Below are positions 14,699 through 49,367 of a DNA stretch of 64,000 nucleotides, piece by piece. The stretch lies in the NCBI RefSeq assembly GCF_017377395.1, contig NZ_CP061800.1, positions 1,922,001 through 1,986,000 on the forward strand, given 5' to 3'. The position numbers were made by a program, and so were the translations under genes. Numbering within the stretch: position 1 is the stretch's first letter; each line of letters opens with the position of its first letter. Source of the stretch: Desulfonema magnum. GTDB taxonomy: Bacteria > Desulfobacterota > Desulfobacteria > Desulfobacterales > 4be13. The notes under the pieces were generated by a model. It did not search any database. It saw only the letters and a list, made by a program, of their open reading frames with translations, and was not told the DNA's origin.

Positions 14699-15760
14699 TC
14701 AATACAATGTTCTTACATCTTTCCCTGATTGGTCTTTGATAAAACCGGAATCAGAAGGAGCAGCACTATTCCAATCCGGCGAAGACATTCCCGGCGGAAA
14801 TCTGTTATTCCAAATCTCAACAGTTATCTTTATATTTGGGAATATTTCATCCCAGTTCGGAGGCGTAATGTTTGCAATGGTTGGAAATATTTTATTCCAG
14901 CTCGGGAAGCCCCCTTCTATTTTTAATTTAGGTGGAATCCAAACCACCGCAGGCGGAAAAGTCTCAGTTTTCTGAGGCCGCTTTCCTAAAGAAGTAACAT
15001 TCACCTCAGCCTGGGGATGCTGCTCCCATTGCTTACCACGCTTATCTGTTACATGGATGACAGACTGAACATTTTCCATAATGGTATGCCAGCTTGGAGC
15101 AGATGTGGCGAGATTTTTGTGCAGGCTGGTGAGAAAAGCATGGGTAAATTTGCCTCCGTATTGAGAACTTGTCCAGGAATATTCCCCGGGTACGGAACCG
15201 GATGCAATGATATGACCTCTGTATTTTAAAAAGAGCTTCTGATAGTTTTCAGCTTTCGGTCTGGCCGTACCAAAATTCTGGCTGAAAATAGAATCGCTGT
15301 AACTGTTACATGAATCTGACATGGCGATAAAGAAACGTGGATTTTTCTCTCGAAGCTTGGAAACGATATCATCTAAATCCAACCTCCGATCCAGGGCCAG
15401 ATAAGGCCATCTCGATTCTTTGTTTCTTGTACGACCACCATGACCAGAATAATGAAATACTGCCACATCATCCGACCCAAGGGATAATATGTCTAAAGCA
15501 TTAAGCACATTGCTTTTATTCAGACGATTTCCGTAGCAAGTATCAAGATTTAATCTCATGCCTGTATGATTGGAAACAGAGTTATACAGCTCTGTCACCT
15601 TGAGCAAATCTTTCTCAGTGCCTTTACCGACTGAGCGATCATTGGTGTCTGCGGCGATCACAACATGAAGTGTGGCACTGAGAGACAAATTCGGAAAAAC
15701 AGCAATCAATGTAACCATCACAAGAGATAAATAAAATCCCTTCCATTTTTTATGAAACAT
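14699..15760 (-). CDS. secreted caspase-like peptidase (C14 type)
   Basis: Start set at the ATG at 15760 (GGAGCT upstream) rather than farther upstream, because this begins a clean signal peptide (MFHKKWKGFYLSLVMVTLI, ending near Ala29) and avoids overlap with the previous gene. The caspase fold is clear: His107 in FHYSGHGG and Cys151 in AMSDSCNSYSD. The roughly 353-residue protein has a proline- and tryptophan-rich C-terminal tail with three similar units (FPSWNKIFP, PPNWDEIFP, SPDWNSAAP). Caspase-like enzymes cut after Arg/Lys or Asp; here it would act in the periplasm. Neighbours are a lipoprotein and ribbon proteins of the same cluster. Confidence 0.87.
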   Translation of the reverse strand: MFHKKWKGFYLSLVMVTLIAVFPNLSLSATLHVVIAADTNDRSVGKGTEKDLLKVTELYNSVSNHTGMRLNLDTCYGNRLNKSNVLNALDILSLGSDDVAVFHYSGHGGRTRNKESRWPYLALDRRLDLDDIVSKLREKNPRFFIAMSDSCNSYSDSIFSQNFGTARPKAENYQKLFLKYRGHIIASGSVPGEYSWTSSQYGGKFTHAFLTSLHKNLATSAPSWHTIMENVQSVIHVTDKRGKQWEQHPQAEVNVTSLGKRPQKTETFPPAVVWIPPKLKIEGGFPSWNKIFPTIANITPPNWDEIFPNIKITVEIWNNRFPPGMSSPDWNSAAPSDSGFIKDQSGKDVRTLY

Positions 15761-15797
15761 AATAATAGCTCCTGAATATTTAAGAATATCAATAAAT

Positions 15798-16292
15798 TCA
15801 TTTCGCCAGAGGAAACAAAGAATAAGCAAGTTCGATCAGTTCTTCTCTGACAGGATCGGAATCCTCTATCTTTTCATCATCTCCCTGGGCAAACAGCCAA
15901 AGATCGCAGGAGAATGATAAAAGAATCACGACAGCTTCCCCGCCCTTTATAAATTTCAATCCCACTTCAGGACGAAACTTACACGACTTTTCAATGCCGA
16001 AATGATAGCTGTTCTCATCAAAGATCAATGACTGGATTTTTTTTAGTTGCTCTTCGTTAAGATTTGGCCCCTGTTTTGAAATGGGAAATCCGGCTAATGC
16101 TTCTGATGAGGCTTTTTCTTGTTCGGCATTTACCCGGAAACTTTCCACACGCTCAGGGGCAGCAATTACAGAGATCATTTGGTCTCCGAGGAAATCTTTG
16201 ACATCTGGTGGAACTTTGACTGTCGTCTGTATGGGAAGCGAGCAGGCCGCCACCATGAATAATACACCTAAGCCAATAAAATATTTAAACAT
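15798..16292 (-). CDS. small lipoprotein
   Basis: 164 residues with a lipoprotein signal peptide and lipobox VAAC near residue 17, RBS AGGAGG upstream. The body has no recognised domain; it includes KSCKFRPEVGLKFIKGG and VVILLSFSCDLW, consistent with a small mixed alpha/beta periplasmic fold with paired cysteines. It ends 37 bp before the caspase-like gene, probably co-transcribed. Confidence 0.8.
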   Translation of the reverse strand: MFKYFIGLGVLFMVAACSLPIQTTVKVPPDVKDFLGDQMISVIAAPERVESFRVNAEQEKASSEALAGFPISKQGPNLNEEQLKKIQSLIFDENSYHFGIEKSCKFRPEVGLKFIKGGEAVVILLSFSCDLWLFAQGDDEKIEDSDPVREELIELAYSLFPLAK

Positions 16293-17435: not shown

Positions 17436-17512
17436 AGTCCCGGAGGGACGACCGAAAATAGCCCGGCAATTTATTGCCGGGAGGAATTTATTGCCGGGGG
17501 GGAATTTCCGGC
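17436..17512. repeat. dispersed CCCGGCAATTTATTGCCGGG repeat
   Basis: GTCCCGGAGGGACGACCGAAAATAGCCCGGC and a following AATTTATTGCCGGG palindrome, same family as 16325-16440. It overlaps the 3' end of the gene at 17471, whose last residues (SPPAINSSRQ) are therefore repeat-encoded. Confidence 0.7.
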
Positions 17513-17965
17513 CTTTTTCAGCGCCGCCCATGTTTCATCATCTATAAATCCGGTACGTTTTAAACGGTTTTGTCCCTGGAAGTTCTTTATGGCTATTTCA
17601 GTGTCTTCATCAAGCTTCCCGTCAACCTTGCCATTATATAGAAAGAGCTCACTCTTTAATATTTTTTGAGCATATCTCACTCTCTCATCAATCTTATCCT
17701 TATCTGCTCCGACATCTTTTTCTTCCGGAGTTTTTTCAGAAAGGGGAGGTTTTTCAGGCTCAACCTTTACTGGCCCATTGTTGTCTTTATCTTCTGGCGT
17801 TAGATAAAACGATATTCCGATAAAAAAAGCCGCCAATCCACATAATATAATAATATTTTTATATAAATTCCTCTTAATACGTTTGCCTGTGTTCGGGCAA
17901 AACTCAGTTCCCATCGGATGGGACTCAGCACAATGAGGACATTTTATGGATTGTCTTTGGCTCAT
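17471..17965 (-). CDS. zinc-ribbon, single-TM protein with peptidoglycan-binding domain
   Basis: 164 residues: ribbon CPHCAESHPMGTEFCPNTG (about 9-27), membrane helix (about 37-55), a Pro/Glu/Lys linker, and a PG_binding_1-type three-helix domain (RYAQKILKSELFLYNG, GKLDEDTEIAIKNFQGQN, FIDDETWAALKKAG). Ribbon inside, wall-binding domain outside. The start abuts the stop of the upstream gene, so translation is probably coupled. The very C-terminus reads through a dispersed repeat. Confidence 0.85.
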   Translation of the reverse strand: MSQRQSIKCPHCAESHPMGTEFCPNTGKRIKRNLYKNIIILCGLAAFFIGISFYLTPEDKDNNGPVKVEPEKPPLSEKTPEEKDVGADKDKIDERVRYAQKILKSELFLYNGKVDGKLDEDTEIAIKNFQGQNRLKRTGFIDDETWAALKKAGNSPPAINSSRQ

Positions 17966-19030
17966 CTATTTTTTACCAGTTCTCCAATTCATCTGTTCCA
18001 TAGTTCGGCATTTGTCCTGCCTGATGACCTCAATATTTGACCCATTGTATTTTATGTTAAAAACATGCCACCATTTTTTGTTACAATTGGTCGGAACAGA
18101 AAATTTTTGCTTCTCACACCCATTGGTCACCAGTTCCACCGTTGCCTGTGACCTGCCGAGGGTTCCCCTTCCTGCATAGAGATAAATAGCATATTGATAA
18201 GTCCCCTTTAACTTATTGGATATGGTAACGGTTTCAGGCCCATAAGAACTTGTGTCATCAACATCCAGTTCAGCAGCTTTTGAACCATTTTTGAAGCTGG
18301 CTTTCTTATTGGAATAATAGACATGCCGGGATTTCAGAGATGAGTGCTTGGGTAAAAACAGATGAGAATCAAGATCATTCGGATTCAGCCCCCACTCCAG
18401 GATAACTCTTGCAAGTTCATTGCCAGATAATTCAGGAGACATGGTTAAAGTCACTTCTGTCACTTTCCCTTTTTCCACCTTCACATCTTTGTTTGCAGGG
18501 CAGAAGCCGGATGCGTCTAATTCGATCTTATGATTTCCCGGTTCCAATTCAGATAAGACAGCCCCCTGGATCCCGCCTGATGCATTTTGACTTGCTGAGG
18601 ATATTTTTGCATTAAACGCCGACAATTTCTTTTTATTTGTGGCATTGATCGCAAATGCTTTTATCCTGCCAAATGTGGGGATAAGAGAGGCTTCTATTTC
18701 CGCTGATTCCAAAGAGGGGATATGAACACTGGCGATATGGGGTTCATATCCCTTTATGTGAAGTTCCACTTCTGTGTCACCGCTTTTAATACTATTGACA
18801 GCCGCGACATATTCCTCATTATGCCGACGAATTGATCTGGAAAACTTCTGACCGGAAGAAACAATATCCAACCTCATCTCTTTTCCGGAAAGGTCGGTGT
18901 TGAACACATTATCCCTCAGCTTAACGATCAAATCTCCCGGAGGAACCAGGAAAAACGGAATCGCCAGCATTGCAAGGGCAATGAGGGCAAGTAAAAACAG
19001 TACCACCTTGATTTTAGCATTTCCATTCAT
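17966..19030 (-). CDS. membrane-anchored YfaP-like (DUF2135-type) protein
   Basis: 354 residues with an N-terminal membrane anchor (about 9-28). The middle is beta-rich, in the style of PEGA or carboxypeptidase-regulatory-like repeats (EVELHIKGYEPHIASVHIP, LEPGNHKIELDASGF). The C-terminal part matches the YfaP/DUF2135 pattern: WGLNPNDLDSHLFLP, then an acidic DVDDTSSYGPETVTI and an IYLYAGRGTL strand. Exported by inference. It is tightly packed between the protease gene (11-bp gap) and the ribbon-PG-binding gene (0 bp). The biochemical role is unknown. Confidence 0.8.
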   Translation of the reverse strand: MNGNAKIKVVLFLLALIALAMLAIPFFLVPPGDLIVKLRDNVFNTDLSGKEMRLDIVSSGQKFSRSIRRHNEEYVAAVNSIKSGDTEVELHIKGYEPHIASVHIPSLESAEIEASLIPTFGRIKAFAINATNKKKLSAFNAKISSASQNASGGIQGAVLSELEPGNHKIELDASGFCPANKDVKVEKGKVTEVTLTMSPELSGNELARVILEWGLNPNDLDSHLFLPKHSSLKSRHVYYSNKKASFKNGSKAAELDVDDTSSYGPETVTISNKLKGTYQYAIYLYAGRGTLGRSQATVELVTNGCEKQKFSVPTNCNKKWWHVFNIKYNGSNIEVIRQDKCRTMEQMNWRTGKK

Positions 19031-19041: not shown

Positions 19042-19827
19042 TTACGGTAAATCCTGACCCGTTATTTGCTGAAAGAAATTCTTCATTCTGTTGATGGGGA
19101 TGACATATTCGACACCCGCCACTTCAACCCCCTGAACTTCACCTCTGACACCTGAAACGATAAGCCCCACCACCTTTTTCTCATTGGCAAGAAACACGGG
19201 GCCTCCGCTGTTCCCGGGATTCGGCTGCATTCCATTGGCAATGAACATATCATGGTCGGTGCTGAACTGGGCAATTCTTCCCTCATCTGACACAGATGCC
19301 TTGTCAGCAGAGGAAGCAATCCCGAGCAGCGGATAGCCTATGGTAAAAATTGCATCTCCGTCATGATCAACCTCATACTCTGCGGAATCAGCCAGTTGCA
19401 ACGGGGGCAGAGAAGTATCATTAATTTTTAATATGGCAAGGTCTTCGGCCGTTCCCCGACGGGAGGTGATACCTTCAAGCGTTGCCACATGCTTCATCCC
19501 TTTGTAGTCCTGAAGGGCAAATTTTTTACATTGAGCGCCGCAGGCCGCCACATGAGCATTTGTGGCAACATACCCCGGCTGAATAACAAAGCCCGTTCCG
19601 GTACCGCACGCTTTATTATCACAACCAATGGCAACCACCAACAGTATGCTTTTCTTCGCCTCCGGCACAAATTTCGAGAGATCAACAGTGCTGATGTCAT
19701 TTGGCGGACGAATTATCCAGCGAAAATGTTCCGCATCCAAAATTACAAATGTATTTAATCCGATACCAATCAGAAAAACCATAAAAAGGAAAAATTTCAC
19801 CATCCCTGTGGGCTGTCCTCTGCTCAT
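19042..19827 (-). CDS. membrane-anchored trypsin-like serine protease
   Basis: 261 residues. One N-terminal membrane helix (about 10-30), then an S1-fold protease with a full triad: His92 (ATNAHVAAC), Asp129 (AEDLAILKI), Ser207 (PGNSGGPVF). There is no PDZ domain, unlike DegP/HtrA, and four cysteines (CDNKAC, ACGAQC) near the active site may form periplasmic disulfides. First of a tight run with the YfaP-like and ribbon-PG genes. Together with the caspase-like and CHAT proteins it gives the cluster three different protease folds. Confidence 0.92.
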   Translation of the reverse strand: MSRGQPTGMVKFFLFMVFLIGIGLNTFVILDAEHFRWIIRPPNDISTVDLSKFVPEAKKSILLVVAIGCDNKACGTGTGFVIQPGYVATNAHVAACGAQCKKFALQDYKGMKHVATLEGITSRRGTAEDLAILKINDTSLPPLQLADSAEYEVDHDGDAIFTIGYPLLGIASSADKASVSDEGRIAQFSTDHDMFIANGMQPNPGNSGGPVFLANEKKVVGLIVSGVRGEVQGVEVAGVEYVIPINRMKNFFQQITGQDLP

Positions 19828-20458: not shown

Positions 20459-23400
20459 TTACAGTTCCCCACCGCACAAACTGCAACGTGATCCCACCGG
20501 TGTCATCCACTCATCACAATACTGACACTTAATTTGCTTACCCTCCTTTGTTTCATTTTCCACCTTATCTTCAGGAATATCGAACTCATTCTCCGGCGGC
20601 GGTTCATCCCTGTGTTCAGCATTCTCAAACTCATTCTCCGGCGGCGGTTCATCCTTGTGTTCAGCATTCTCAGCGTCCTGTTGTTGCTGCTCCTCCTCCG
20701 GTTCCGAAGTATATGATTCCGGTTTCCTTGTATCCGTTTCAGTTTCCGTTGCAGCCGCAGCATCAGCTTCCTGCTGGGAAGGATCCCAGCCGCATTCGGG
20801 ACAGGGAAACTCACTCGCCTTTCCCTCAAAGCTGTAACACTGCTGGCATTCAATCGTCTCTTCATTCGGCAGGGGTTCCCGTCCGCAGTTCCAGCACAGG
20901 GGTTGGTCACTCGGGGTCTTTTTCTCACAATATTGACAAATAACATGCTCTGCAATGGTTTTCTTACAATTGACGCAGTAAATAGCACGTATATCAATGG
21001 GCTTGCCACATTCGGGACAGGGACGCTTGCGTTGCTGTTTGCCCTGCGCTTCCGGGATATTGAATCCGGGTTCCGGCGTTTCCTCCATTTCCTCATCCGG
21101 TACATCCTCTGCCCCGGAAAAAATACGCTTTCTGTCCAGAACGAGCGCATCCGGATACTTCCGTTTTTCTCCGAGCACGCTGCTCCGATCAATTACCTGA
21201 AATTTACCTGACATTTTTGTATATGGCCTGAGCGCATTTACATATTCCTGATAGGTCAGTTTCTGAGCCTTGGGCTTGTTCCGCAGTTTTATCAAGGCAG
21301 TTTCCACCTGATGACGTTCTTTGTCCGTGCGAAGCAGTTCTTTTTCCACTCTCTCGCTACGCTCGAACTCCAAAGCATGATAAAAGGTAAACCGTCCTGC
21401 CTGTGCGCTGGCTGCTTCATCATCTTCCGCAGTCGGCGGATACACATGGGTAAGGTAAAACTCGATCAGCAACAGATACACAGACAGCAGATGTCGCTGC
21501 CGAAGCTCCTCCACCACTGTTTCTGTCTGATCAGACAGCAGGTTGCGATGGGTTTCATGCTCGGGCCGCTGATCCTGATAAAGTATTTCAATCGCGGCCG
21601 CCTCGTCTCCCAGGTCTTCCTCTGTCATTTCAAAGGCCACCTCTCTTTCGTAGCTGTAGAGGTTTATCACTGTCTGACGATCTTTCCCGACCTGTTCTCG
21701 GATTTTAAACAGACCCAGCATCCGCGCCAGCACAAAGGTCCGTATGGATTCGCTGTATTTCCGGGATTCCTCGCTTGTTTTGGGAATAATTACGGAAAAT
21801 ACGCGTTTTCTGTTCAGAACAAGCGCATCCAGGAAACTGTGCCTTTTGCCGACAACGCTCTGAGTGATGACTTCAAATTTTCCCGCCGGCTTTGTATAAG
21901 GTTTCAGTGCGTTTGCATATTCCTCGTAGGTCAGCTTATTCCCTTTGGGTCTGTTGCCCCGAAGTTCCTGTAATGTCGCGTCTGTCTTTGCCCGTTCCTC
22001 TTTTGTGGTAATCAGTTCTTTATTAATTCTCTCCCCGCGCTCAAAATCCAGTGCCGCGTAATATGGAGAGTATCGGATAATTGACACCCCCGCAGCTTCG
22101 TCATCCTCTGTTACCGGCGGATATACATGATTGAGATAAAATTCAATCAGCAGCAGATAGACCGGCAGCAATCCCCGGCGGCGAAGCTCCTCCACCACAT
22201 TTTCAACCTGATCAGATATTTTCCTGCGATGGCTTTCATGGTCAGGCTGAGTATCACGGTAGAGAATATCCACAGCCGCAAACTCATCCCCGAGGTCTTC
22301 TTCCATTGTATCAAAAGCCACTTCCTGTTCATAGCTGTAGCGATTGACAACGGTCTGATCATCAGCGACGATCTCCCGAACTTTCAGCAATCCCAGCAGA
22401 CGCGCCAGCACAAAGGCCCTGATGGACTCGCTGTATTTGCGAACCTCGTCGCTTGTTTTTGGAATAATATCCTCAAATTGAAAGCGATTCTTGTCTATGT
22501 GGACATCTTCCTGATTATCAGGACTCACATCTTTGGGATTTCTGCAAAAATCCTCATAATTCTGACTTAATCCCCCGACTTCGGTCACTGACGAGGGATA
22601 AAAGGCAGTTGCCCCTCCCAGCTCATTATAAAAAATAATGGAACCCTTCTTTGTTTTGCCAATATTTTTAAACTGGGGCTGGGTGTCTCCGGTAGCCATT
22701 TTTTTCTTCAGCGTACCCTGAAACTCATTAAATCTCACCCGGTCTTCTTCGTCAATACCGATAATACACGGCTTTTGCTGCTGTCTTACCTTAAACTGAA
22801 CCTGACTGACCTTGTTGTTCGGCCTTAACCAGACCTTGGCCCGTCTGTAAGCCGTTTCTATCAGGTTTTCCCGATCCCGTTTGGAACACCTTTTCTCATC
22901 CATCAGCATTTCCAGGGCTGAAGGCTGTCTGTTTTTAATGGCAAAGAAAATTCTGCATTCCTCCAGCATCTGGTCTTCGATATTTTCAATGGGCTGACTC
23001 TGGATAAGACTCAGGGCCTCGGTCACAGAGTCAACCCCGAAAATCTTTGTCAGCAGCTTGTCACTCACTTCCTTCAGGTTCTGTTTATGCTGTTCGGGTT
23101 CCCCCATCCAGATATTATACCATTCGTTTACATCGCCGTCCCGATAGAGACTCTTCAGCGTAGCAGACTCCTCTTCCCTGGAAAAGTATTCTTGCTTCTC
23201 ATCGAGTATGCTCCTGAGCTTATCCATGCCGCCTGTCAGTTGGTGATATTTTGCAAGTAGCCCCTCACCGCTGGAACTGTCCTGACCCAGAAATTTGTCA
23301 ATCCTTTCGCAGATCAGTTTTCCCCGTTTCATCACCTGCTTCATCACCCTGGCAAGCAGATAATTATAAAGCACACCCTCGCCCGGAACATTGGGCGGGG

Positions 23401-29985: not shown

Positions 29986-30411
29986 CTAAGTATAAGCCGT
30001 ATCTTTTTTCAGCAGAATAACCGCCAGCCATATAAGCCATATAGCGCCGAAAAAAACAAAAACCCATTTGGCCCAGTAGTAGCGAAATCCTATCTCAAAG
30101 ATCAGGTAAGTGCTTATGGATAACCATGCCATGCTGTAAAGTAAAAACATAGACCAAAACAGGTTTTTGCAATATCCGGGAGAGTAATATCTTAGCAGGA
30201 CATGGGGATAAACCAATTTATAGAAAATAAACCAGAGTATGACAAAGCCGAGAATAAAAAGACCTCCCCTGAGAAAATAATTCTTGGCCCCGCCTGTATC
30301 CGAAATTTCTGTGCCCTGCGCCAGCACATAACTTTGCATGGAATCGGACATGTCAAATGTCCCCATACACACAAGATAAAATATAAAAAAGAAAAATATC
30401 CACCGCTTCAT
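29986..30411 (-). CDS. polytopic small membrane protein
   Basis: 141 residues with a signal-like first helix (IFFFFIFYLVCMG), a short external loop, and three further membrane helices (FILGFVILWFIFY, FWSMFLLYSMAWLSIS, WVFVFFGAIWLIWLAVIL). No family recognised. It sits between the VWA protein and the lipoprotein genes on the same strand. Confidence 0.75.
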   Translation of the reverse strand: MKRWIFFFFIFYLVCMGTFDMSDSMQSYVLAQGTEISDTGGAKNYFLRGGLFILGFVILWFIFYKLVYPHVLLRYYSPGYCKNLFWSMFLLYSMAWLSISTYLIFEIGFRYYWAKWVFVFFGAIWLIWLAVILLKKDTAYT

Positions 30412-35261: not shown

Positions 35262-36545
35262 TCACAGCCTGCATATTTTTACAAGCCCTTTGTCATTTCC
35301 GGCCATAAGGATATTTCGGGACGCTGCAAGGGCTGTTATCTGATCTGTTGGGTGATCAGACACATCCCACACCGCAGGCATTTCCGGGTTTCGAATATCA
35401 TACAAATGGACATTTCCATCTCCCATTCCCACGATCACAGCGAAATCTTTTAAAACCAGGGGGTTGCCCCTGATTTTCTGTCCGCTTTGGAATTCTGCCT
35501 GTCTGTTTATTCTTTTAAAGAACAGCCCTTTTGAGTTGTTGACAATCGGTTCAGTAATACCGGCCATGACAAAGTCTTGTACGTTTTTACAAAGTAAGGC
35601 ATTAATTTCACCCGTGGCAGCATCCACACGGCAAAGGGTCTCATCTTTTTTGAAAACAACAAATAGGCTTGCCCCGATAATGGCGATGGGAATAACCTTT
35701 CTGAATTTGGACGGTGCTTTTTTGACGGGCAGAGTGACCAGTTCCGCATCTGAGCCTGTTATATTATCTATGCAATGCAGTTCCACTTCCTCGGAACCAT
35801 TGGCAGAAAAAAAATAAACTTTTTTGTTCTTAGCAGTAAAATGAGCAGCCATTGAACTTAAATGTGATCCGCTGTGGAGTGTTGCGGGAGAACCGGGGTG
35901 ATCTGTCTCAATATCACTGATCATACAAATTTCATGGTGCCGATCCGGATATGCCAGCGTAAAAAGGAGTCTGTTTTCCACAGGTAATAATGACCGGATG
36001 GGCGTGGCGTTCACTGGCACTGTCCAGCGAGGCTCAACTGCGGAGGTGTCGGAAAACAGCTTTCCCAGGGAATATGCCTGAAGGCTTTTTTCTGCTCCGA
36101 TATAGAGCGAGCCATGATTCAGAGCAGGGACAGAATACACTTTTCCGCCCACATTAAACGAAGTGAGTTCCTTAAACGGAACTTGGGAGATATCAACGAC
36201 CTTCACCTCTCCGCCCTGGGAAATGGCAAACAGATAATTGTCATAAACCAGGAGACTTTTGCACCGGTCAGGAAGCCGAAAATTTTCTTCATGTTCGGGT
36301 CTGATCTCTGGAAATTTTTTGGTGATCACAAACCGGTTCACTCCGAGACCCTGGGCGCTTTGTTTGAACATGGGCCAATCTGCATCTGAATCGGGCAGGG
36401 GAGTGCCGCATTCCCGGCAGTGAACAGCAAAAACACGGTTTGATGTCGCACACTTTCTGCAAATTTTTAACTGACGCTCGCACTTCTGGCAGCGAGTCCT
36501 GCCGCCTGCAATGTCAGCCTTGCAATCCAAATAAGGACAACGCAA
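35262..36545 (-). CDS. zinc-ribbon plus beta-propeller protein
   Basis: 427 residues. Start is a TTG at 36545, supported by a strong AAGGAGGTGAACTC immediately upstream. The N-terminus has stacked ribbons (CPYLDCKADIAGGRTRCQKC, ICRKCATSNRVFAVHCREC) followed by WPMFKQSAQGLG, a PQQ-propeller-like opening, and repeated beta-blade segments (SLYIGAEKSLQAYSLG, FAVIVGMGDGNVHLYDIRN, ILMAGNDKGLVKICRL). No signal peptide, so cytoplasmic. A propeller with ribbons suits a scaffold for assembling the other ribbon proteins. 13 bp from the preceding gene. Confidence 0.85.
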   Translation of the reverse strand: MRCPYLDCKADIAGGRTRCQKCERQLKICRKCATSNRVFAVHCRECGTPLPDSDADWPMFKQSAQGLGVNRFVITKKFPEIRPEHEENFRLPDRCKSLLVYDNYLFAISQGGEVKVVDISQVPFKELTSFNVGGKVYSVPALNHGSLYIGAEKSLQAYSLGKLFSDTSAVEPRWTVPVNATPIRSLLPVENRLLFTLAYPDRHHEICMISDIETDHPGSPATLHSGSHLSSMAAHFTAKNKKVYFFSANGSEEVELHCIDNITGSDAELVTLPVKKAPSKFRKVIPIAIIGASLFVVFKKDETLCRVDAATGEINALLCKNVQDFVMAGITEPIVNNSKGLFFKRINRQAEFQSGQKIRGNPLVLKDFAVIVGMGDGNVHLYDIRNPEMPAVWDVSDHPTDQITALAASRNILMAGNDKGLVKICRL

Positions 36546-41340: not shown

Positions 41341-44300
41341 TTAAACCTTGTTATATATCACCTGTGGTTGCTGAATCATTCTTCCTTCCGGAGCCTCTCG
41401 GAAACCGTTTCGGAGAACCTGCACAATCACACCGTCCCGGGTCATGTTCTGGGATACGGTGGAGCGGGCAGAATGTATCTTTTTGTCAAACAAGGTTTTC
41501 CCCAAAACAATTTCAACAGGCTCCAACTCCCCTGTGGAAAGAATGCGGAGTATAATCTCATGAGCTTCCCCCGGGAAATTATTGTGCTTTTTATCCTGGC
41601 TCTCCTGGGAAGCGCATAAAAATGTATCTGCAAACTCAATAAAATATTCACGCACCCATTTTTTCATATCAAAATCAAGGAACTGCTGTACCTTCCCAAA
41701 ATCCTGCAATGATATCAGCAAATGTGTCCAGTTGCGGAGGCGGGAGATTTCTTTTTCCGGTTCCCCTGCTTTTATCGGATTTGATGCAAAATCGCTCTGC
41801 TGTTCGTTTATTGCTGCAAGGATAAACAAGGAGGGATAATATTCATTCAGCGGAATCAGCATCTTTTTACAGCGTGAGACAAGTTCTTCATTATGAGAGA
41901 GCAATCCGGGCAGGGGGCTTATATTTTGAATATAAAAATCTTTCTCTTCGGACAGACTGACTTTCATGGCAAGTTCTGTCAGTTCTCTATTTTCCGATTT
42001 AAAAAACTCCCATTTATCAATCAGTATGTTTTGCTCCATTTGTATGATTGCGGATGAGATGACATCGTTTTTCATTTTATCCGAGCGATTTGGGGCAGCT
42101 TGTTCCAGACCTGAAGCCATATCTGTCTGAACCTGATCATTTTGTGTATCTGTTAGCACAGTCCCATTAAGCTTATTCACAATCACCTGAGGCTTTTGAA
42201 TCACTCTTCCGTCCAGTTCAAATCCGTTTCGGTGGATACCCATAATGATACCATTGGGGAAACAAATGTTGTTTGTTGTGGAATGGACACTATGCCTTGT
42301 GCTCTCAAAATATGTTTTCCCCAGAATGATTTTGACTGGTTTCACATTTCCTCTTTCAAGTACCTCAAGCACGGTTTGATAAAGCGTTTCCAAGCTCCCT
42401 ATTCTCTCTTCAGATTTATATCTGAGCAGCAGTTTTTCAGAAGTCATATGCCGTTGCTCCAGAAAAATTGGATCGGATTTGGTCTCATAGTATCTGACCA
42501 GCACTTTGTCCGCAATTTCAAGAAACTCCCCGCCTATCCACTTCTCAAGTTTGAAATCAAGCAGCCTCTTCACTTCCCGGGGGTTTTGTAGGGATGCGAG
42601 AAACTGAGACCACATGCGAAGGTTGGAGAGAACTCTTTGCCCTTCCCATTCCTCTGTATCCAACTCTCCTGCCACATATTTGTCAATAATTGGCAGTTTG
42701 ACCATCTGAGGATAATACTCCCTCAGTTGCAGTACAATTTCATTATAAGATGAAAAAAGCTGCTCGTCATCAGGATCAGCGCCAAGAAATTCCGGCAGAC
42801 GCTCTGATAATACCTTCAGATAAAAACTTATCTCACCGGATTCCCTTGTTCTGTTAGCAAAATCAACAACTTCCTCATGCTCTTTTTTAAAACTACTCCA
42901 ATTGTTCTCCAGCATTCCCCTTTCCATTTCTATGATTGCGGACAGGATGAATTCTTTGGACGGAGCAACTTCCTTCTTGGAAACAGCTTCGAATTGTTTT
43001 TGGAAGTCGGAGAGTTTATTTTGAAGTTCCTTAATCTCACTGTCATAGTAAGGAGGATCTGATACTTTTTCGGCAGGCTCAGAGAGTTTGTTTTTTAGCT
43101 CTTTAATATCTTTCAGAATTTTAATAATCTCTTTTCGGATTATTTCAGTCATTCTATTTTTTAACTTGATGTCCTGTTTTAATTTAATCGGGTCTAAGTC
43201 ATCAAACTCTCTCCGAATTTCCCCAATCTTTTTTTCCAAGTCCTCTGTTATTTTATTTGGCAGTTCGGGGACATTAGAAATAGGCTGTTGTTTTTTTCTA
43301 ATTAATTTTCTCAAATCATTTATATTTATTTGCAACTCCCTGATCTTCTCATTCTTCAATCTGTTAAGCTCGGCTCTGATATCGTTATCATCTTCGGGGA
43401 AAGAGGACTCTCTGACATTCTTTTCAAATTCAGCAAAACTTTGTTTTATAGTTTCAAATTCATTAATTGCCTTTTCTGTTATAAACTCTTTTGAAAGTTT
43501 TTCTTTTAACTTACTTATCGCCTCATCTAAATCCTTTACCCATTCTTTTAGGCGGTTAATTTTAAGAGTAGGAGGTAGTTTCTTATTTAAGTCTCTTACC
43601 CATTCTTCTATTTTTCCAACTCCGATAGAAGCAGGCCGTATCTGTGAATTTTTCTTAACCTCCTCTTCTAATTTGCTGCGTTTTTTATCAACAAGATATA
43701 ATTCAATGGCAAATCCAAATAATATGACAGTCCATAAAGCAATAAAAAACGGAAGAACAGAGTTCTCCTGATCATTTTTCTCCATCGTCTCATCAGATAG
43801 CTTTATGGATAGTATGTGAAATCTTAGCTCGAAAAACCTGACTTTGGCATCCTTATAAGTTTCCGCCCAATATGTTCCGCGTTCGTTTATCTCCGATTTC
43901 CGAATTATTTTCGCCAATTTATCATAGTTATCAAAGCCTGATGATATTTTTGTTATGAAACTGCGATAAACTGCACCGTAAGCATCAAAAAATTCTGCTC
44001 TCTCCAATTCTAACATTATTTTATTTGTCAGAACTATCAGCTTATCAAGCCTCTCATAATATTTTAAATTTGGGCTGGGAGGATAATTTTCATTCTCAAT
44101 TTCCGAAGCAATCTCGGCAAGCAGGTTTCCCAATTCTTCGGCTTTTTCATTCCACTTTTCTTTAACGGCCTCTTTAATCTTACCTTTTTCGGGTGTTGCC
44201 AGAAAAGGCAGTTGTTTATCTTCAAAAATATATTGTTGCAAATTTTCTTTGTTAACAATGTCTTCAATATAACTTAGAGTTTTTATAGCTTCTCTTATCT

Positions 44301-44925
44301 GACTCTCAAAAGCAGAAAACCTTTCTATAACTAAACGGGACATACGTCTTCGGGACATATCCCTTCTTAAATTTCCGAAAGTTTTTATGTCTATTATATT
44401 ATTTATTCTTTCGTAACTCTTATTATTGTATATTGTTTTGTATTTTAAGGTTCCTATAAATTTATTGTAAATTGTTGCAGATGCAGTAGCCAAGTTGGCA
44501 TTTACAAACTGTTTCAAGGTATTATGTGTAAATGTCAGTACTTTTAAAAGGCTTTTATCATTATTCTGTTCTTCCCGAATAATTTCAGCTAATAATTCGC
44601 CTAACTCCCAAGCGCACCCACGTTTTTTCTCACAACAAGAGTTTTTTTCTGTCCAGAATTTGCCGTTCTCTTGGTTTTCTTCTGTTTTATCATCTTCTGC
44701 TATTTCCTCTAATGGAAACATTTCAGCATCAGCTAAAATACGCCTTTTTAATTCTTCCTTATTAACAAGCTTTTTTATATCTTCACAACTCAGTTTTTTT
44801 TCTGCATAAGCAGAATTCATAAAGATCAATGGTAATACGGCAAAACCAAGCAGGCAGGTCAGAAGAACATAAATTTTTTGATATGATTTTAACAAATATC
44901 TGACGGATAGCATTTTATAAACCAC
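41341..44925 (-). CDS. membrane protein with cytoplasmic coiled coil and two GrpE-like ends (paralog 1)
   Basis: 1194 residues; signal peptide ending AYA|EKK, exported helical domain, membrane helix (LPFFIALWTVILFGFAIELYL), coiled coil, and two GrpE-like modules: YFESTRHSVHS ... GFELDGRVIQKPQVIVNKL, then LFDKKIHSARS ... GRMIQQPQVIYNKV. It is collinear with the 889-residue paralog except for the extra C-terminal module, so the pair arose by gene duplication with a domain gain or loss. It overlaps the start of the upstream gene's 3' end by 11 bp, implying translational coupling with the Hsp70-like genes. Confidence 0.8.
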   Translation of the reverse strand: MVYKMLSVRYLLKSYQKIYVLLTCLLGFAVLPLIFMNSAYAEKKLSCEDIKKLVNKEELKRRILADAEMFPLEEIAEDDKTEENQENGKFWTEKNSCCEKKRGCAWELGELLAEIIREEQNNDKSLLKVLTFTHNTLKQFVNANLATASATIYNKFIGTLKYKTIYNNKSYERINNIIDIKTFGNLRRDMSRRRMSRLVIERFSAFESQIREAIKTLSYIEDIVNKENLQQYIFEDKQLPFLATPEKGKIKEAVKEKWNEKAEELGNLLAEIASEIENENYPPSPNLKYYERLDKLIVLTNKIMLELERAEFFDAYGAVYRSFITKISSGFDNYDKLAKIIRKSEINERGTYWAETYKDAKVRFFELRFHILSIKLSDETMEKNDQENSVLPFFIALWTVILFGFAIELYLVDKKRSKLEEEVKKNSQIRPASIGVGKIEEWVRDLNKKLPPTLKINRLKEWVKDLDEAISKLKEKLSKEFITEKAINEFETIKQSFAEFEKNVRESSFPEDDNDIRAELNRLKNEKIRELQININDLRKLIRKKQQPISNVPELPNKITEDLEKKIGEIRREFDDLDPIKLKQDIKLKNRMTEIIRKEIIKILKDIKELKNKLSEPAEKVSDPPYYDSEIKELQNKLSDFQKQFEAVSKKEVAPSKEFILSAIIEMERGMLENNWSSFKKEHEEVVDFANRTRESGEISFYLKVLSERLPEFLGADPDDEQLFSSYNEIVLQLREYYPQMVKLPIIDKYVAGELDTEEWEGQRVLSNLRMWSQFLASLQNPREVKRLLDFKLEKWIGGEFLEIADKVLVRYYETKSDPIFLEQRHMTSEKLLLRYKSEERIGSLETLYQTVLEVLERGNVKPVKIILGKTYFESTRHSVHSTTNNICFPNGIIMGIHRNGFELDGRVIQKPQVIVNKLNGTVLTDTQNDQVQTDMASGLEQAAPNRSDKMKNDVISSAIIQMEQNILIDKWEFFKSENRELTELAMKVSLSEEKDFYIQNISPLPGLLSHNEELVSRCKKMLIPLNEYYPSLFILAAINEQQSDFASNPIKAGEPEKEISRLRNWTHLLISLQDFGKVQQFLDFDMKKWVREYFIEFADTFLCASQESQDKKHNNFPGEAHEIILRILSTGELEPVEIVLGKTLFDKKIHSARSTVSQNMTRDGVIVQVLRNGFREAPEGRMIQQPQVIYNKV

Positions 44926-46549
44926 TCAACACTGTCATATCGCTTGATTTAGGAAAATGGAGTTTTCTCGGTGGCTTGGGCTTTCGTCCTCCCAATGCCG
45001 CTGTAACCTCGCCCCTCAGCCCGCCGGATGTTCCTTTCAGGTCAAAGGTAAGCTCCAGCATATTGTCATCCCGGATATCATCGGCAGTGACATCATAGCT
45101 TAACGTACACAGGCTTGTATTATATCTCGGAATCAGGTTATTTCCCCATAAGATATCCACCACCAGCAAGTCTCTTTCCATGCCAGGCTCCGCATCCAGC
45201 CCCAAAATCTGCTTAACAGACAAGCTCTTTTTTCCTGTTTTCAGTGGAAGAATAACCTCGGTGGGCACCAGTTCAATGCTGGAATCCTGTTCAGATGCGA
45301 TTCGTACAGAATAATTATGCTGAACCGTAATGCGCCTGCTCTGACGCTCCCCGATCCATTTCAGCATCTCCGCAATCCCATAAGCTGTGCGCTCCATGGC
45401 AAGAATGCGCTGCACACGGGCCGGCTGATATTTTCCCACAGCATTCAGCATCAGGTTTTCAAACCCGCCACTCATAAAAAAAGAACCCGAAGTAACAAAA
45501 AAGTCCGCATCGTTTAGCCCCAGTTCATCTGTGGCACGCATCAGGTTCACAGATGCCTCATAGCTGAGACTCTCACCCAACTCTCCGCCAAGTTTTTCCG
45601 CAAGCAGCCTGTAAGTCATCCGCAGACCCGGATCAGGGGGGATATTCGTTGAAAACATTCCGCCAAAAAGACCGGACAGTGCCATGTCCACCTGCACCTG
45701 TTCATCCCGATTCAGCAGCAGGCCATCCCTGTAAAAAGCCTCGGCAATCTCATTCCTCACGGCCCCCCACCCCAGTTCTTTTACAGAACGAGTGCTGACA
45801 TGCGCCACATTTACATCTTCATCATCCCTCACGACTTCCATCCTGGTCACATGCAGACAGTTTTCGTCCATATTCAGCACACCGATCTTCTGCACAGACG
45901 GCAGCCTCAGAAAGTGCATGGCCAGTGCGGCCGCATGATTGAGGATGACAACCCGCCGGAAAGCCATCCGCTTCAGAACCTTATATAAAATCCCCTCAGC
46001 CAGACGACTCAGATAAGCAGGCCCTGCCACGACGACATTTAACTCATGCGGATGAAAATTCATTTCACGAACAGAAGTGACCACCGGATACAACAGGAAA
46101 GCCAAAAATGCCGACGACATATCTGTAAAGGCTGATCTCTCTTCTCTCTCCTCTGTAATGCCATGTGAGGAAAGGGCATACAGCGGATGTCTCACAGGCA
46201 TTATCATTTCAGCCGCAGACATTTCATAAGGTCTGAGCCACCCCAATCTTCCATCCCGGAGAAACATATCAGACTCATTTTCAGAAATGACAGCATTCAG
46301 TTCGTCCAGCCATTCATCCCCTTTCTGAGACTTCTTCGGATCCAAAAAAATATCAGCGGAGAAATAGCGTGACGTCATGCCGTGTCGTTTAAGGACGCAG
46401 GGCATAGTTCTTCCCTCCGGCGTGACGATCAGCGCGACAACATTTCTGCTTGACAGGTCTATGATCAGATAAGGATGCACACAAAAATCTTTCTGAAATT
46501 CACCAGATCGGAAAACTTCGTTAAGCAATCCAGCGATCTTCCTCTTCAA
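44915..46549 (-). CDS. degenerate Hsp70/actin-fold ATPase
   Basis: 544 residues from TTG 46549, overlapping the Hsp70 gene by 29 bp. The fold is inferred from ordered blocks: a short phosphate-1-like start (YLIIDLSSRNVVALIV), then NVVVAGPAYLSRLAEGIL and VVILNHAAALAMHFL (compare the Hsp70 AEP.AAAL block), IGVLNMDENCLHVTRMEV at the phosphate-2 position, and FMSGGFENLMLNAV at the adenosine position. The canonical DLGTT and DlGGGT glycines are missing, so nucleotide hydrolysis may be lost. It probably acts as a partner of the adjacent canonical Hsp70. The start is uncertain. Confidence 0.7.
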   Translation of the reverse strand: MKRKIAGLLNEVFRSGEFQKDFCVHPYLIIDLSSRNVVALIVTPEGRTMPCVLKRHGMTSRYFSADIFLDPKKSQKGDEWLDELNAVISENESDMFLRDGRLGWLRPYEMSAAEMIMPVRHPLYALSSHGITEEREERSAFTDMSSAFLAFLLYPVVTSVREMNFHPHELNVVVAGPAYLSRLAEGILYKVLKRMAFRRVVILNHAAALAMHFLRLPSVQKIGVLNMDENCLHVTRMEVVRDDEDVNVAHVSTRSVKELGWGAVRNEIAEAFYRDGLLLNRDEQVQVDMALSGLFGGMFSTNIPPDPGLRMTYRLLAEKLGGELGESLSYEASVNLMRATDELGLNDADFFVTSGSFFMSGGFENLMLNAVGKYQPARVQRILAMERTAYGIAEMLKWIGERQSRRITVQHNYSVRIASEQDSSIELVPTEVILPLKTGKKSLSVKQILGLDAEPGMERDLLVVDILWGNNLIPRYNTSLCTLSYDVTADDIRDDNMLELTFDLKGTSGGLRGEVTAALGGRKPKPPRKLHFPKSSDMTVLSGL

Positions 46550-49367
46550 GACGTTCCGGTTTAATATCTACAGGTTCATCATTTGCGAATACATCCAATT
46601 TTCTATTCGCGTCAATGACAAATCTCACATCACATGTCCGATTTTCATCAGGTAAGTTTGTGGTAATCTCCCCGATTCTTTTGATATCAGGATTTCCACG
46701 AATTTTGTTATTTTTACCAGCGTTTTGAAAAAATGTCAGATGCAATATCCTGCCGACAATCTGATTCTCGTCATAATGCCTTATATCCTCAGCCGGATAT
46801 GTTGATCCGAGTGGTATGATCTCATCAAATATACGCCGTGTTCCCACCTGTTTGGCTATCCCATAACTATGCGGCAGTTTCCTGCCCTCCGCGATCAGAT
46901 GCACCCCACTTCCGCCGATAGCCCTTTTCTGAGCACCGTACATGGCCGCCCCCCTGGCCACACAGACTTTCAGATGTTCTGCCTCAAGAATGTCGTTCTC
47001 ATCCGGCAGATGGGAGAAATTGCTTCTGATACGGGAACGAACAGCTGGTGTGAGGCTGGAACGCCCCGTATGGATAAGGTAATCAACAGAATCGGACGCT
47101 GTTCCGGCAAACTCAAGTGCGTCCATGACGAGCTTCTCACAGCCTGCAAGAATATCCTCAATCCACCCCTCGAACAGATATCGTGTAACCGTGAGACTGT
47201 ATTTTTTTCCCCTGATTTCATGCACTTTGCCGTTCTCAATAGAAAATATCGGGAGCATAAGGCGGTCAGTGTCAAAAGACGTTTCCGTGTCAGTTGAAAG
47301 GCTCATTTTAATGTCTTCTGCTGCCTTTTTCCAATAATATCTTGATGATAATACAAATTTCCATACATCATCGCTCCACTTTTCTTTTTCTCTGCGATCC
47401 ACCAGCTTTTTAAAGTTATCCGAGATAATCGTTTCATCAAAATCGGAAATTTCTGCCTTGCATCCCTCGAGCAGTTGCCTCATCAGAGCCAGATCAATAC
47501 TGTCTCCTCCCAGCATATTATTCCCTTTGTTGGCCAGCACTTTTATACCAATACTGCCATTAGAAAGCCCTTCCACCTGAACAACGGAGACATCCAATGT
47601 TCCGCCGCCATAATCAAACACCAGGAAATTGACTTCCTTCTGACTATTCAGTTTGTCGTCCAGTTCCGGGTGTTCATCATAAAACACATCCAGGTAGAAA
47701 AGGGCCGCTGCCGAAGGTTCATCTAGGATAATCCCCGCCTGAACATTTTTTCCAACTCGCTGTTGTAAATCTCTGGATATCTCCCGCACAAGTTCTTCTT
47801 CTGTATCAAGATTTGCTATTTGGCAGGCTTTCAGAATGCCCCGTATCTGCAAGTCAAAAAAATTGGCAGGAACGGTGACAATGGCATGGGTGATATTATA
47901 ATAGATACCGGTCATATTGTAATATTCGGTTTCGGCAAGCTCGATCAGTTTTTTGATAATGCAGCCGGCAAGCTCATCCGGTGAAAAATTTTTACCGTAA
48001 AATTCCCGGTCATTGCCATATCCCATCACCCTTTTGATGGAACGCACCGCCAATTCCGGCGAAATAACCGCCTCATTCTGCGCTTCCCACCCGACCTTAT
48101 AATTGTCATGGCCGCCTTCGAAGAGCAACACACTCGGAATCAGACGATCTGTTTTGCCTGTGGCTTTGTCTTTTGTAACCTCCACCACGTATGTGTTATC
48201 GTCATTATTGTCATATATGGCGATTACGGAGTTGGTCGTTCCGAAATCAATGCCGATGTAATCCTGGCAGTCTGTCGGCTGGACAACATTTATCCTGATC
48301 GGAATTTCCAAAACAGATTCCTGGCCGGCTGTGTAAACAAAGATTTTCCCCTCCTGCCATCCTTCTGACTTATTGGGCAATTTATGAGGCCGCACAAGGG
48401 CTTTGAATTTATATGCTCCCAAAATTGTCGGGCCGGAAATGTACTTGGCAGCGGAATCCGATGAAAGCAGGGTGAAGGTCTTATGCTCTTGGATAATCTG
48501 AATCCAGTCCGCATCTGTTTCTATCCCGCTTATCTCGACATCCAGATCTCCGGTGTTTGTCACCACAATATCTTCAGTGTAGTTCTGTTTTGAAAGACAG
48601 GGATCAATGTCAATTTCTTTCCTGTCCGCAGTAAGCTCCATCCGAACCCCCTGCCCCTTTACAGGAATCCATATATCCTCTTTATAATTTTCAAAGATGA
48701 GGTGAAAGCCTGTTTTATCCGAAACAGCGGCAGAATTATAAAGATTGGAATCCCATATCACAGGAATGGTGATGGTGTCATTAATTTTTATTTTGATTGG
48801 AAAGTTAATATGTTTTGCGACCTGTAAATGCGCTCCCCCCTCTGGCTTGACCGCTTTCAGTGTCAGCGGAACAGCCCCCTGATTCTGAAGCTCCAATTTT
48901 CTTTGAACAACAGCGTCCTCTGTTATTTCACCAAAGTTAATTTTTTCTGACAAAAGAACAGGTTTCGGCCCAGTTTTTACTTTTACAGATAAATTCAAAG
49001 CCTTTCGTTCATCATTATTCACAATACACAAAAAGCTGTAATCCTGTTCTGTAAAATCAGATGGTAACACCCCATAATTTAAGGAAATATTAACCTCAGT
49101 CTGTGAGTTTGCTTTGACAGTGAAATCATTTGCTGGTTCAAAATGGACAAACTCAGGACTCGGGCCCTTGCACAAAATCCGGATATGGGTATCTTTGCCT
49201 CCGGAATTGATGAAAGTCGTTTTTTTCTGGGTAATAATCTGAGAAATCAGAGTCACTTCATCCGGTTTCAGTTCAATATATATGAGCTGATGACCACAAT
49301 ACCCACAATAATTATCACTATCCTTTAAATACCACTGATGACATTTCGGACATTCTGTGCCAGTCAT
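46521..49367 (-). CDS. Hsp70 (DnaK-like) with N-terminal zinc ribbon and Ig-like domains
   Basis: 948 residues, ATG at 49367 with GAGGTGAT upstream. Order: zinc ribbon CPKCHQWYLKDSDNYCGYCG (about 6-25), two or three beta-sandwich units of ASH-like type (INFGEITEDAVVQRKLELQN), then an Hsp70 nucleotide-binding domain from about 368: phosphate-1 IGIDFGTTNSVIAIYD, AAALFYLDVF block, phosphate-2 VFDYGGGTLDVSVVQ near 584, adenosine motif HTGRSSLTPAVR. After it only a short beta-rich tail remains; the canonical substrate lid is absent. This is the first gene of the block and is preceded by a good promoter. Confidence 0.9.
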   Translation of the reverse strand: MTGTECPKCHQWYLKDSDNYCGYCGHQLIYIELKPDEVTLISQIITQKKTTFINSGGKDTHIRILCKGPSPEFVHFEPANDFTVKANSQTEVNISLNYGVLPSDFTEQDYSFLCIVNNDERKALNLSVKVKTGPKPVLLSEKINFGEITEDAVVQRKLELQNQGAVPLTLKAVKPEGGAHLQVAKHINFPIKIKINDTITIPVIWDSNLYNSAAVSDKTGFHLIFENYKEDIWIPVKGQGVRMELTADRKEIDIDPCLSKQNYTEDIVVTNTGDLDVEISGIETDADWIQIIQEHKTFTLLSSDSAAKYISGPTILGAYKFKALVRPHKLPNKSEGWQEGKIFVYTAGQESVLEIPIRINVVQPTDCQDYIGIDFGTTNSVIAIYDNNDDNTYVVEVTKDKATGKTDRLIPSVLLFEGGHDNYKVGWEAQNEAVISPELAVRSIKRVMGYGNDREFYGKNFSPDELAGCIIKKLIELAETEYYNMTGIYYNITHAIVTVPANFFDLQIRGILKACQIANLDTEEELVREISRDLQQRVGKNVQAGIILDEPSAAALFYLDVFYDEHPELDDKLNSQKEVNFLVFDYGGGTLDVSVVQVEGLSNGSIGIKVLANKGNNMLGGDSIDLALMRQLLEGCKAEISDFDETIISDNFKKLVDRREKEKWSDDVWKFVLSSRYYWKKAAEDIKMSLSTDTETSFDTDRLMLPIFSIENGKVHEIRGKKYSLTVTRYLFEGWIEDILAGCEKLVMDALEFAGTASDSVDYLIHTGRSSLTPAVRSRIRSNFSHLPDENDILEAEHLKVCVARGAAMYGAQKRAIGGSGVHLIAEGRKLPHSYGIAKQVGTRRIFDEIIPLGSTYPAEDIRHYDENQIVGRILHLTFFQNAGKNNKIRGNPDIKRIGEITTNLPDENRTCDVRFVIDANRKLDVFANDEPVDIKPERLEEEDRWIA

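What the first reader, a model, noticed from the sequence alone, without database searches (positions are those of the whole stretch)
14699..49367. Envelope-spanning tubulin-Hsp70-GrpE-VWA gene block as a candidate undescribed system
About 20 consecutive minus-strand genes, often overlapping or a few bases apart, combine a 1593-residue tubulin-superfamily protein, a canonical and a degenerate Hsp70, membrane GrpE-like proteins, ASH-like and beta-propeller scaffolds, VWA proteins, wall-binding and wall-cutting proteins, and trypsin- and caspase-like proteases. Co-occurrence of a non-FtsZ tubulin family with VWA genes has been proposed from comparative genomics (Makarova and Koonin 2010) as a membrane-remodelling system, but the chaperone pair, GrpE-like anchors and protease outputs go beyond what I recall of it. 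Topology suggests an outside-to-inside relay: wall/VWA sensors, membrane exchange factors, cytoplasmic polymer.
Basis: partly seen in the sequence, partly recalled or inferred. Interest (0 to 1): 0.93.

Follow-up and report, generated by a model that had tools for sequence, protein, structure and literature searches.

The report
Membrane-wired bacterial tubulin–Hsp70 machine
Three bacteria of one order carry the same gene block pairing a giant tubulin-like protein with an Hsp70 chaperone, a predicted inactive Hsp70 twin and a predicted membrane protein ending in a GrpE domain; it is likely a machine in which envelope signals would switch the chaperone and so a tubulin-type scaffold.

Summary
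The observation largely holds: the minus-strand block (14699-49367) encodes one Tubulin_2 protein, an Hsp70, a pseudo-Hsp70, two predicted membrane GrpE proteins, ASH/zinc-ribbon proteins, trypsin and caspase. Two transposase-type genes break it; its VWA is motif-only and its propeller weak. Eight core genes (HSP70, pseudo-Hsp70, TM-GrpE, ASH-ZnR, propeller-like, VWA-like, small TM protein, tubulin) recur in order in two other genomes of the order; one also has trypsin-PEGA. Further afield, 40 of 63 relatives of the Hsp70 on contigs of 18 kb or more have a contig length exactly equal to that of a long-tubulin contig; Hsp70 and tubulin distances agree (r 0.94). GAP1-N2 and DO-GTPase2, marks of the closest published tubulin/HSP70 conflict systems, were not found in the three genomes. 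Caspase, transglycosylase and wall-binding genes are not core. Likely mechanism: a receptor-like transmembrane GrpE sets the nucleotide state of a lid-less Hsp70 that, with its pseudo-Hsp70 partner, controls assembly of a zinc-ribbon tubulin scaffold. All functional steps are inferred. New variant of a known kind.

The parts
46521..49367 (-). HSP70: N-terminal zinc ribbon + ASH/HYDIN-like domains + Hsp70 NBD and SBDbeta, no alpha-lid; ATP-site residues intact
   Evidence: Pfam HSP70 129 bits, HYDIN-like Ig; DnaK match 370-931 to 4-483 of 625; site residues 42 of 42; core in G002 and G027
44915..46549 (-). dHSP: pseudo-Hsp70 (predicted Hsp70 fold, ATP-site motifs lost)
   Evidence: model pTM 0.83; Foldseek and VIA DnaK matches; motifs absent in 9 of 9 aligned relatives; overlaps HSP70 by 29 bases; core
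41341..44925 (-). GrpE2: predicted extracytoplasmic domain, TM, cytosolic part with two GrpE C-terminal domains
   Evidence: Pfam GrpE 6.8e-8, two stretches; hydrophobic segments 18-36 and 389-407
38608..41277 (-). GrpE1: predicted extracytoplasmic domain, TM, cytosolic part with C-terminal GrpE domain (paralogue of GrpE2)
   Evidence: Pfam GrpE 1.8e-8 at 774-888; 58% identical to GrpE2; hydrophobic segments 3-21 and 399-417; one copy each in G002 and G027
36559..38547 (-). ASH-ZnR: ASH/HYDIN-like beta domains with C-terminal zinc ribbons
   Evidence: Pfam 4e-16; core
35262..36545 (-). PROP: N-terminal zinc ribbons + predicted beta-propeller
   Evidence: weak Pfam only; ribbon motifs; core
30628..32493 (-). 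VWA1: VWA-like extracytoplasmic domain (motif only), one TM, cytosolic part, Gly/Pro-rich tail
   Evidence: invariant LYDNSGSM; TM 447-465; no Pfam VWA hit; core; strong hits only in G002 and G027 among 388 order genomes, one further marginal hit
29986..30411 (-). TM141: small membrane protein with three hydrophobic segments
   Evidence: hydrophobic segments; tblastn hits in G002 and G027 just before tubulin
20459..25240 (-). TUB: Tubulin_2 domain with GTP-site motif, long middle region, C-terminal zinc ribbons
   Evidence: PF13809 218 bits; GGTGxG 42 of 42; ribbons; core
19042..19827 (-). trypsin-like protease with N-terminal hydrophobic segment, triad motifs present
   Evidence: Trypsin_2 3e-20; motifs; in G027; no hit on the G002 contig
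17966..19030 (-). PEGA-domain protein with N-terminal hydrophobic segment
   Evidence: PEGA 7.8e-8; in G027 directly after trypsin
17471..17965 (-). zinc ribbon-TM-PG_binding_1 protein, accessory; G027 has a TM-ARC6-like IMS protein (weak zinc ribbon) at the same place
13476..14558 (-). zinc ribbon-TM-SPOR protein, accessory
   Evidence: SPOR 1.1e-6; ribbon and TM
14699..15829 (-). caspase-like protease with N-terminal hydrophobic segment, accessory, not core
   Evidence: Peptidase_C14 63 bits; His and Cys motifs; no hit in G002 or G027
25873..27738 (-). transposase-type gene inside the block
   Evidence: DUF6431 just under cut-off and weak ISH6-type match
32951..34438 (+). transposase-type gene on the other strand between PROP and VWA1
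   Evidence: DDE_Tnp_1 4e-4, below cut-off; PROP and VWA1 are adjacent in G002 and G027

Best explanation
The block encodes a conserved set (tubulin-like protein, Hsp70, predicted pseudo-Hsp70, predicted membrane GrpE) that likely works as an envelope-anchored switch, in which a transmembrane GrpE would relay outside signals to the Hsp70 and the Hsp70 would control assembly of a tubulin-type scaffold. Shown by calls: the genes, their order in three genomes, agreement of Hsp70 and tubulin distances, an Hsp70 ATP site kept intact, loss of ATP-site motifs in dHSP, GrpE C-termini in proteins with an internal hydrophobic segment and a fast-changing N-terminal part, and zinc ribbons in four core proteins. 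Predicted: membrane topology and the Hsp70 fold of dHSP. Inferred: (1) GrpE1/2 and VWA1 sense a signal at the cell surface; (2) the GrpE head then changes nucleotide exchange on the lid-less Hsp70; (3) dHSP is a non-hydrolysing partner, somewhat as Hsp110 partners Hsp70 (recalled); (4) the Hsp70 acts on TUB, held by zinc-ribbon/ASH/propeller adaptors; (5) the polymer and the anchored trypsin and ZnR-TM proteins then act locally on the envelope.
For: Same core order in G002 and G027. Long-tubulin set separates from 12 other Tubulin_2 proteins of the class (support 0.997). 40 of 63 subfamily Hsp70s on contigs of 18 kb or more share an exact contig length with a listed long tubulin; 0-1 of 95 under ten shifted lengths, 0 of 24 other Hsp70s. 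Distance agreement r 0.94, permutation maximum 0.41, 42 pairs. Hsp70 and tubulin site residues invariant in 42 of 42. dHSP model and motif loss. GrpE last 130 aa 64% identical to G002 against 35% for the N-terminal outer part; to G027 35% against 23%, the latter within the range of six shuffles. HSP70 to PROP genes overlap or lie 13-63 bases apart.
Against: No J-domain match among the 20 proteins scanned, though Hsp70s usually need one (recalled). No evidence of contact between any two parts. VWA and propeller assignments are weak. By sequence alone dHSP is not significantly linked to the block HSP70 (E 0.074) and only weakly to PDB Hsp70s (best E 0.03). The block is split by transposase-type genes and a 631-base gap, so one transcript is doubtful here. 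The set is rare in the order: strong VWA1 hits in 2 of 388 genomes besides the window. Twelve of 17 fetched Tubulin_2 neighbourhoods showed no relative of the block Hsp70. Agreement of distances would also arise from species relationship alone.
Confidence: 0.42

Rival explanations
1. A derived form of the GTPase-centric conflict systems of Kaur et al. 2020 that lost its GTPase and GAP1: an immune device in which tubulin and Hsp70 assemblies respond to invasion and proteases act as effectors.
For: Those systems have tubulin, VWA, HSP70, GrpE, a second Hsp70-domain protein, zinc ribbons, PEGA and trypsin as variable parts, and a passage speaks of GTPases with tubulin homologues and an HSP70. A TIR-CHAT and a STAND-like ATPase lie to the left in the window and a Card1-type CARF protein follows tubulin in G002. 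Patchy distribution.
Against: No GAP1-N2 match in any of the three module genomes and no DO-GTPase2 match in them, with Corynebacterium glutamicum ringing as control; G002 is only 53% complete. Of ten window proteins scanned against PADLOC, only the trypsin and, weakly, the TIR-CHAT protein matched. Caspase is not core.
Confidence: 0.28
2. The FtsZl1-VWA membrane-remodelling machinery of Makarova and Koonin 2010 with added chaperones that merely fold the large tubulin; no signalling.
For: A Tubulin_2-type protein with a VWA-like membrane protein and peptidoglycan-binding proteins, as in their operons; [quoted passage not shown]
Against: The words Hsp70, DnaK and GrpE do not occur in that paper's main text. 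A folding-only role does not explain a predicted transmembrane GrpE with a fast-changing outer part, nor a pseudo-Hsp70.
Confidence: 0.2
3. An envelope protein quality-control unit in which Hsp70 and trypsin deal with stressed surface proteins and the tubulin is a bystander.
For: Trypsin and PEGA proteins next to the Hsp70 set in two genomes.
Against: Tubulin is in the same order in three genomes and its distances follow those of Hsp70; trypsin gave no hit on the G002 contig.
Confidence: 0.07

Closest known systems
GTPase-centric (DO-GTPase/GAP1-N2) conflict systems, Kaur et al. 2020, PMC7159879 (sections 27 and 29 and passages read)
   Same: Tubulin-domain, VWA, HSP70, GrpE and second Hsp70-domain genes, zinc ribbons, membrane association
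   Different: No GAP1-N2 or DO-GTPase2 match in the three genomes; tubulin and HSP70/GrpE in one block, whereas section 29 calls the tubulin and HSP70 themes non-overlapping (an earlier passage does name GTPases with tubulin and HSP70 together); ASH-like rather than FNIII domains; GrpE is itself a predicted transmembrane protein; no word beginning acidobacteria or desulfo in the main text
FtsZl1-VWA operons, Makarova and Koonin 2010, PMC2875224 (passages read)
   Same: Non-FtsZ tubulin-superfamily protein with VWA-type and peptidoglycan-binding proteins
   Different: No Hsp70, DnaK or GrpE in the main text; no GTPase or protein kinase model matched the 20 proteins scanned, tubulin itself apart
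Kinase-Hsp70 fusions near Tubulin_2 in G025, G106 and G014
   Same: Tubulin_2 gene near an Hsp70-domain gene
   Different: The Hsp70 domain is fused to a protein kinase; block genes other than tubulin and Hsp70 gave no hit there, save one SLT hit in G106
DnaK-GrpE and Hsp70-Hsp110 (recalled)
   Same: Active-site Hsp70, GrpE C-terminus, Hsp70-fold partner
   Different: GrpE is a predicted membrane protein with an outer part; Hsp70 has N-terminal ZnR-ASH and no lid; the partner has lost the ATP-site motifs

Membership tests
DO-GTPase/GAP1-N2 conflict system | GAP1-N2 protein | tested here: not met
   no PF20013 match in G000, G002 or G027; 2 of the 17 tubulin genomes searched do match (G170, G318), on contigs other than their tubulin; C. 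glutamicum control rings. G002 is only 53% complete
DO-GTPase/GAP1-N2 conflict system | DO-GTPase | tested here: not met
   no PF19993 (DO-GTPase2) match in G000, G002 or G027; control rings. DO-GTPase1 was not searched by name; no such GTPase model matched the 20 proteins
DO-GTPase/GAP1-N2 conflict system | FNIII-repeat protein | tested here: inconclusive
   ASH/HYDIN-like beta domains instead
FtsZl1-VWA system | FtsZl1 tubulin-superfamily protein | tested here: inconclusive
   PF13809 matches; that this Pfam family equals FtsZl1 is recalled
FtsZl1-VWA system | linked VWA protein with intact MIDAS | tested here: inconclusive
   VWA1 has DNSGS and TDN but no profile support; a supported VWA lies at 12603-13385
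Hsp70 (HSP70 gene) | ATP-site residues | tested here: met
   42 of 42 pairs
Hsp70 (HSP70 gene) | alpha-lid of the substrate domain | tested here: not met
   the beta part is matched, but the match ends at DnaK 483 of 625 and the protein ends 17 residues later; so an Hsp70 relative, not a standard DnaK
Hsp70 (dHSP) | Hsp70 fold | tested here: met
   on a predicted model
Hsp70 (dHSP) | ATP-site motifs | tested here: not met
   absent in 9 of 9 aligned, three of them lacking the N-terminal stretch
GrpE | C-terminal GrpE domain | tested here: met
   over Pfam cut-off in both window proteins; G027 just under it (25.2 against 25.8 bits)
GrpE | nucleotide exchange on Hsp70 | not testable with these tools
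   needs biochemistry

The most novel reading that the evidence does not exclude
A transmembrane signalling class in which the receptor is a nucleotide exchange factor: outer-domain sensing by membrane GrpE proteins ejects nucleotide from a dedicated ASH-tethered, lid-less Hsp70 paired with a pseudo-Hsp70, which drives assembly or disassembly of a bacterial tubulin polymer at the envelope, a chaperone-gated cytoskeleton shared by Desulfobacterales and Thermoanaerobaculia.
Probability: 0.25. Interest if true: 0.92.

Novelty: new variant of a known kind. Interest (0 to 1): 0.72.

Why it matters
If true, bacteria would have an Hsp70-regulated tubulin cytoskeleton wired through the membrane by GrpE-type receptors: a new way to send a signal across an envelope and a new kind of cytoskeletal control. 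It also gives a concrete core gene list for the little-studied Tubulin_2/VWA operons, which makes the 2010 membrane-remodelling and 2020 conflict-system proposals directly testable.

Tried and rejected
Considered and rejected: that the block is a chance run of unrelated genes (against it: order kept in G002 and G027); that caspase, SLT, glycine-zipper, LysM-SBP and lipoprotein genes are core (no hit in the G027 stretch); that it is a standard DO-GTPase/GAP1 system; that it is a catalogued defence system (ten window proteins scanned).

Led nowhere: the viral-contig scan with the tubulin alignment found no relative; the plasmid search gave 8 records with distant tubulin-domain hits, none covering 80% of the query; no PDB match by sequence to the tubulin domain (weak zinc-ribbon-region hits only) or to VWA1; profile comparison of dHSP with HSP70 was not significant (E 0.074) and dHSP against PDB sequences gave only weak hits, all Hsp70-type, best E 0.03, so the pseudo-Hsp70 claim rests on the model; the VWA1 model is too poor to use. 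The phylum search with the tubulin alignment tallied 112 of 395 genomes, but most rows match only the zinc-ribbon end, and only the window's own genome matched full length (G002 and G027 are not in its list of matches). The genome-contig scan found only the G002 contig, so gene order in Acidobacteriota could not be read. Literature searches, seen as listings: searches gave no paper; one search gave Kaur 2020 and an unrelated paper; one search gave only Kaur 2020; one search gave eight papers, of which only Makarova and Koonin was read (passages); one search gave three papers, none on bacterial systems by title and abstract; one search gave one unrelated paper.

Rows dropped: one of 120 listed Hsp70 rows (P0231) had no contig length; P0223 (62% coverage) was counted with the 24 others. 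Of the 22 genomes with Tubulin_2 besides the window's own, neighbourhoods were fetched for 17; five with weak hits were not. In the tree 12 of the 15 fetched non-module tubulins were used; G170, G374 and G014, which are partial, were left out.
Full report
What is there. The window lies in a single-contig genome of 8,027,777 bases. G002, placed in the same family, has a 35,539-base contig whose length and tubulin match a record titled Desulfobacterales bacterium. That the window's genome is Desulfonema magnum is recalled from its size and was not tested. In transcription order the block reads HSP70, dHSP, GrpE2, GrpE1, ASH-ZnR, PROP, [transposase-type, + strand], VWA1, TM141, glycine-zipper, SLT, [transposase-type], TUB, trypsin, PEGA, PG-binding, LysM-SBP, lipoprotein, caspase. 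Beyond the stated limits lie a ZnR-TM-SPOR protein, a VWA protein, a STAND-like ATPase and a TIR-CHAT protein on the same strand.

Core and accessory. The class search found Tubulin_2 in 23 of 389 genomes. I fetched the neighbourhoods of 17 of the 22 besides the window's own. Two carry the block: G002 with HSP70, dHSP, GrpE, ASH-ZnR, PROP, VWA1, TM141, TUB, and G027, from another family, with the same eight followed by trypsin, PEGA and a protein with an ARC6-like domain behind a TM segment. G002 has other ORFs between dHSP and GrpE and between VWA1 and TM141. In three more (G025, G106, G014) the tubulin gene lies near a protein kinase-Hsp70 fusion. In the other twelve no relative of the block Hsp70 was found on the fetched stretch (BLASTP, E 1e-4), several of which are short contigs. 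VWA1 has strong hits in only G002 and G027 among 388 genomes of the order; a third hit (G111, E 9e-4) is marginal. So the core is rare there but travels together.

Beyond the order. The full-length tubulin profile found 1117 proteins among the 7994 candidates scored, of which 120 were listed, some named as Thermoanaerobaculia or Acidobacteriota. The Hsp70 profile search listed 120, of which I counted 95 (P0128-P0222) as sharing most of the ZnR-ASH-Hsp70 length. Forty of these 95, all among the 63 on contigs of 18 kb or more, have a contig length exactly equal to one in the tubulin list; ten shifts between -3 and +50 bases gave 0 or 1, and none of 24 other Hsp70s matched. That equal length means the same contig is an inference, and both lists are capped. 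In one Acidobacteria contig the names carry tags DMF56_19370 (Hsp70) and DMF56_19400 (tubulin). Pairwise distances of 42 Hsp70-tubulin pairs agree (r 0.94; maximum 0.41 in 2000 permutations); shared descent of the species contributes to this. The tubulins separate from 12 other Tubulin_2 proteins of the class (0.997), and the G027 protein is sister to the set that holds the window's and G002's (0.999). The other core genes could not be checked in Acidobacteriota.

The parts. HSP70 keeps its ATP-site residues in 42 of 42 pairs and aligns to DnaK up to residue 483 of 625, so it has the beta substrate domain but no lid. dHSP, with no family match, models as an Hsp70 with pTM 0.83, matches DnaK structures and lacks the three ATP-site motifs tested in 9 of 9 relatives, three of them N-terminally incomplete, while the partner subfamily keeps them in 89, 95 and 94 of 95. 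GrpE1 and GrpE2 have an N-terminal hydrophobic segment, a large predicted outer part, an internal TM and a C-terminal GrpE domain; GrpE2 has two such domains. The outer part changes fastest (35% to G002 against 64% for the last 130 residues; to G027 within the range of six shuffles), as expected of a sensor. Zinc-ribbon motifs occur in HSP70, ASH-ZnR, PROP, TUB and, before the TM, in the PG-binding and SPOR proteins, perhaps as common docking modules. TUB keeps the GTP-site motif.

How it most likely works. Predicted topology and domain content suggest a switch: outer parts of GrpE1/2 and VWA1 sense, the GrpE head acts on the Hsp70 nucleotide state, dHSP is a non-hydrolysing partner, and the Hsp70 controls TUB assembly on ASH/propeller scaffolds, with anchored protease and ZnR-TM proteins as local outputs. 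Each of these steps is inferred. The lack of a J-domain match among the 20 proteins scanned and the weak VWA and propeller assignments count against parts of it.

Comparison with what is known. Makarova and Koonin 2010 (passages read) describe FtsZl1-VWA operons; Hsp70, DnaK and GrpE do not occur in the main text, though a DnaJ-type cysteine-rich domain does. Kaur et al. 2020 (passages and sections 27, 29 read) describe DO-GTPase/GAP1-N2 systems with tubulin (52%) or HSP70-GrpE (14%) as non-overlapping themes, while an earlier passage names GTPases with tubulin homologues and an HSP70 together. The three genomes here have no GAP1-N2 or DO-GTPase2 match (G002 is 53% complete), so membership fails on tested features, although working in a similar way is not excluded. 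Searches of the paper library listed nothing closer. I therefore file it as a new variant of a known kind.

Noticed in passing
window 34708-34869: A roughly 150-base element with an inner inverted repeat and more than 40 dispersed copies in the genome at about 80-90% identity: a REP- or MITE-like repeat.
   Followed up: partly
L049 10429-14133; L050 6183-9935; L076 2862-7082: Protein kinase-Hsp70 fusion genes near Tubulin_2 genes in three genomes: a second tubulin-Hsp70 arrangement.
   Followed up: partly
window 50035-57617: A tandem array of six closely similar ORFs, five of about 310 aa and one cut short, starting MKSKDG, interrupted by an ORF that looks like a transposase (not tested against families).
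   Followed up: no
window 1528-3582 and 8073-11054: TIR-CHAT protein and STAND-like ATPase with hydrophobic segments, possibly a defence cluster next to the block.
   Followed up: partly
L058 15083-15664 (just left of the window): Another zinc-ribbon protein; its match to the first 42 residues of the SPOR protein is 69% identical.
   Followed up: no
L038 14779-15538: In G002 a Card1-type CARF protein follows the tubulin gene at the contig end.
   Followed up: no
window 20459-25240: Window and G002 tubulins carry a second DIIPKT/VIIPKT-type segment (about residues 1160-1390) missing in G027 (alignment); BLASTP self-comparison did not report it as a repeat.
   Followed up: partly
G000, about 5440-5449 kb (L059): A cluster of three further divergent Hsp70 genes elsewhere in the genome.
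   Followed up: no
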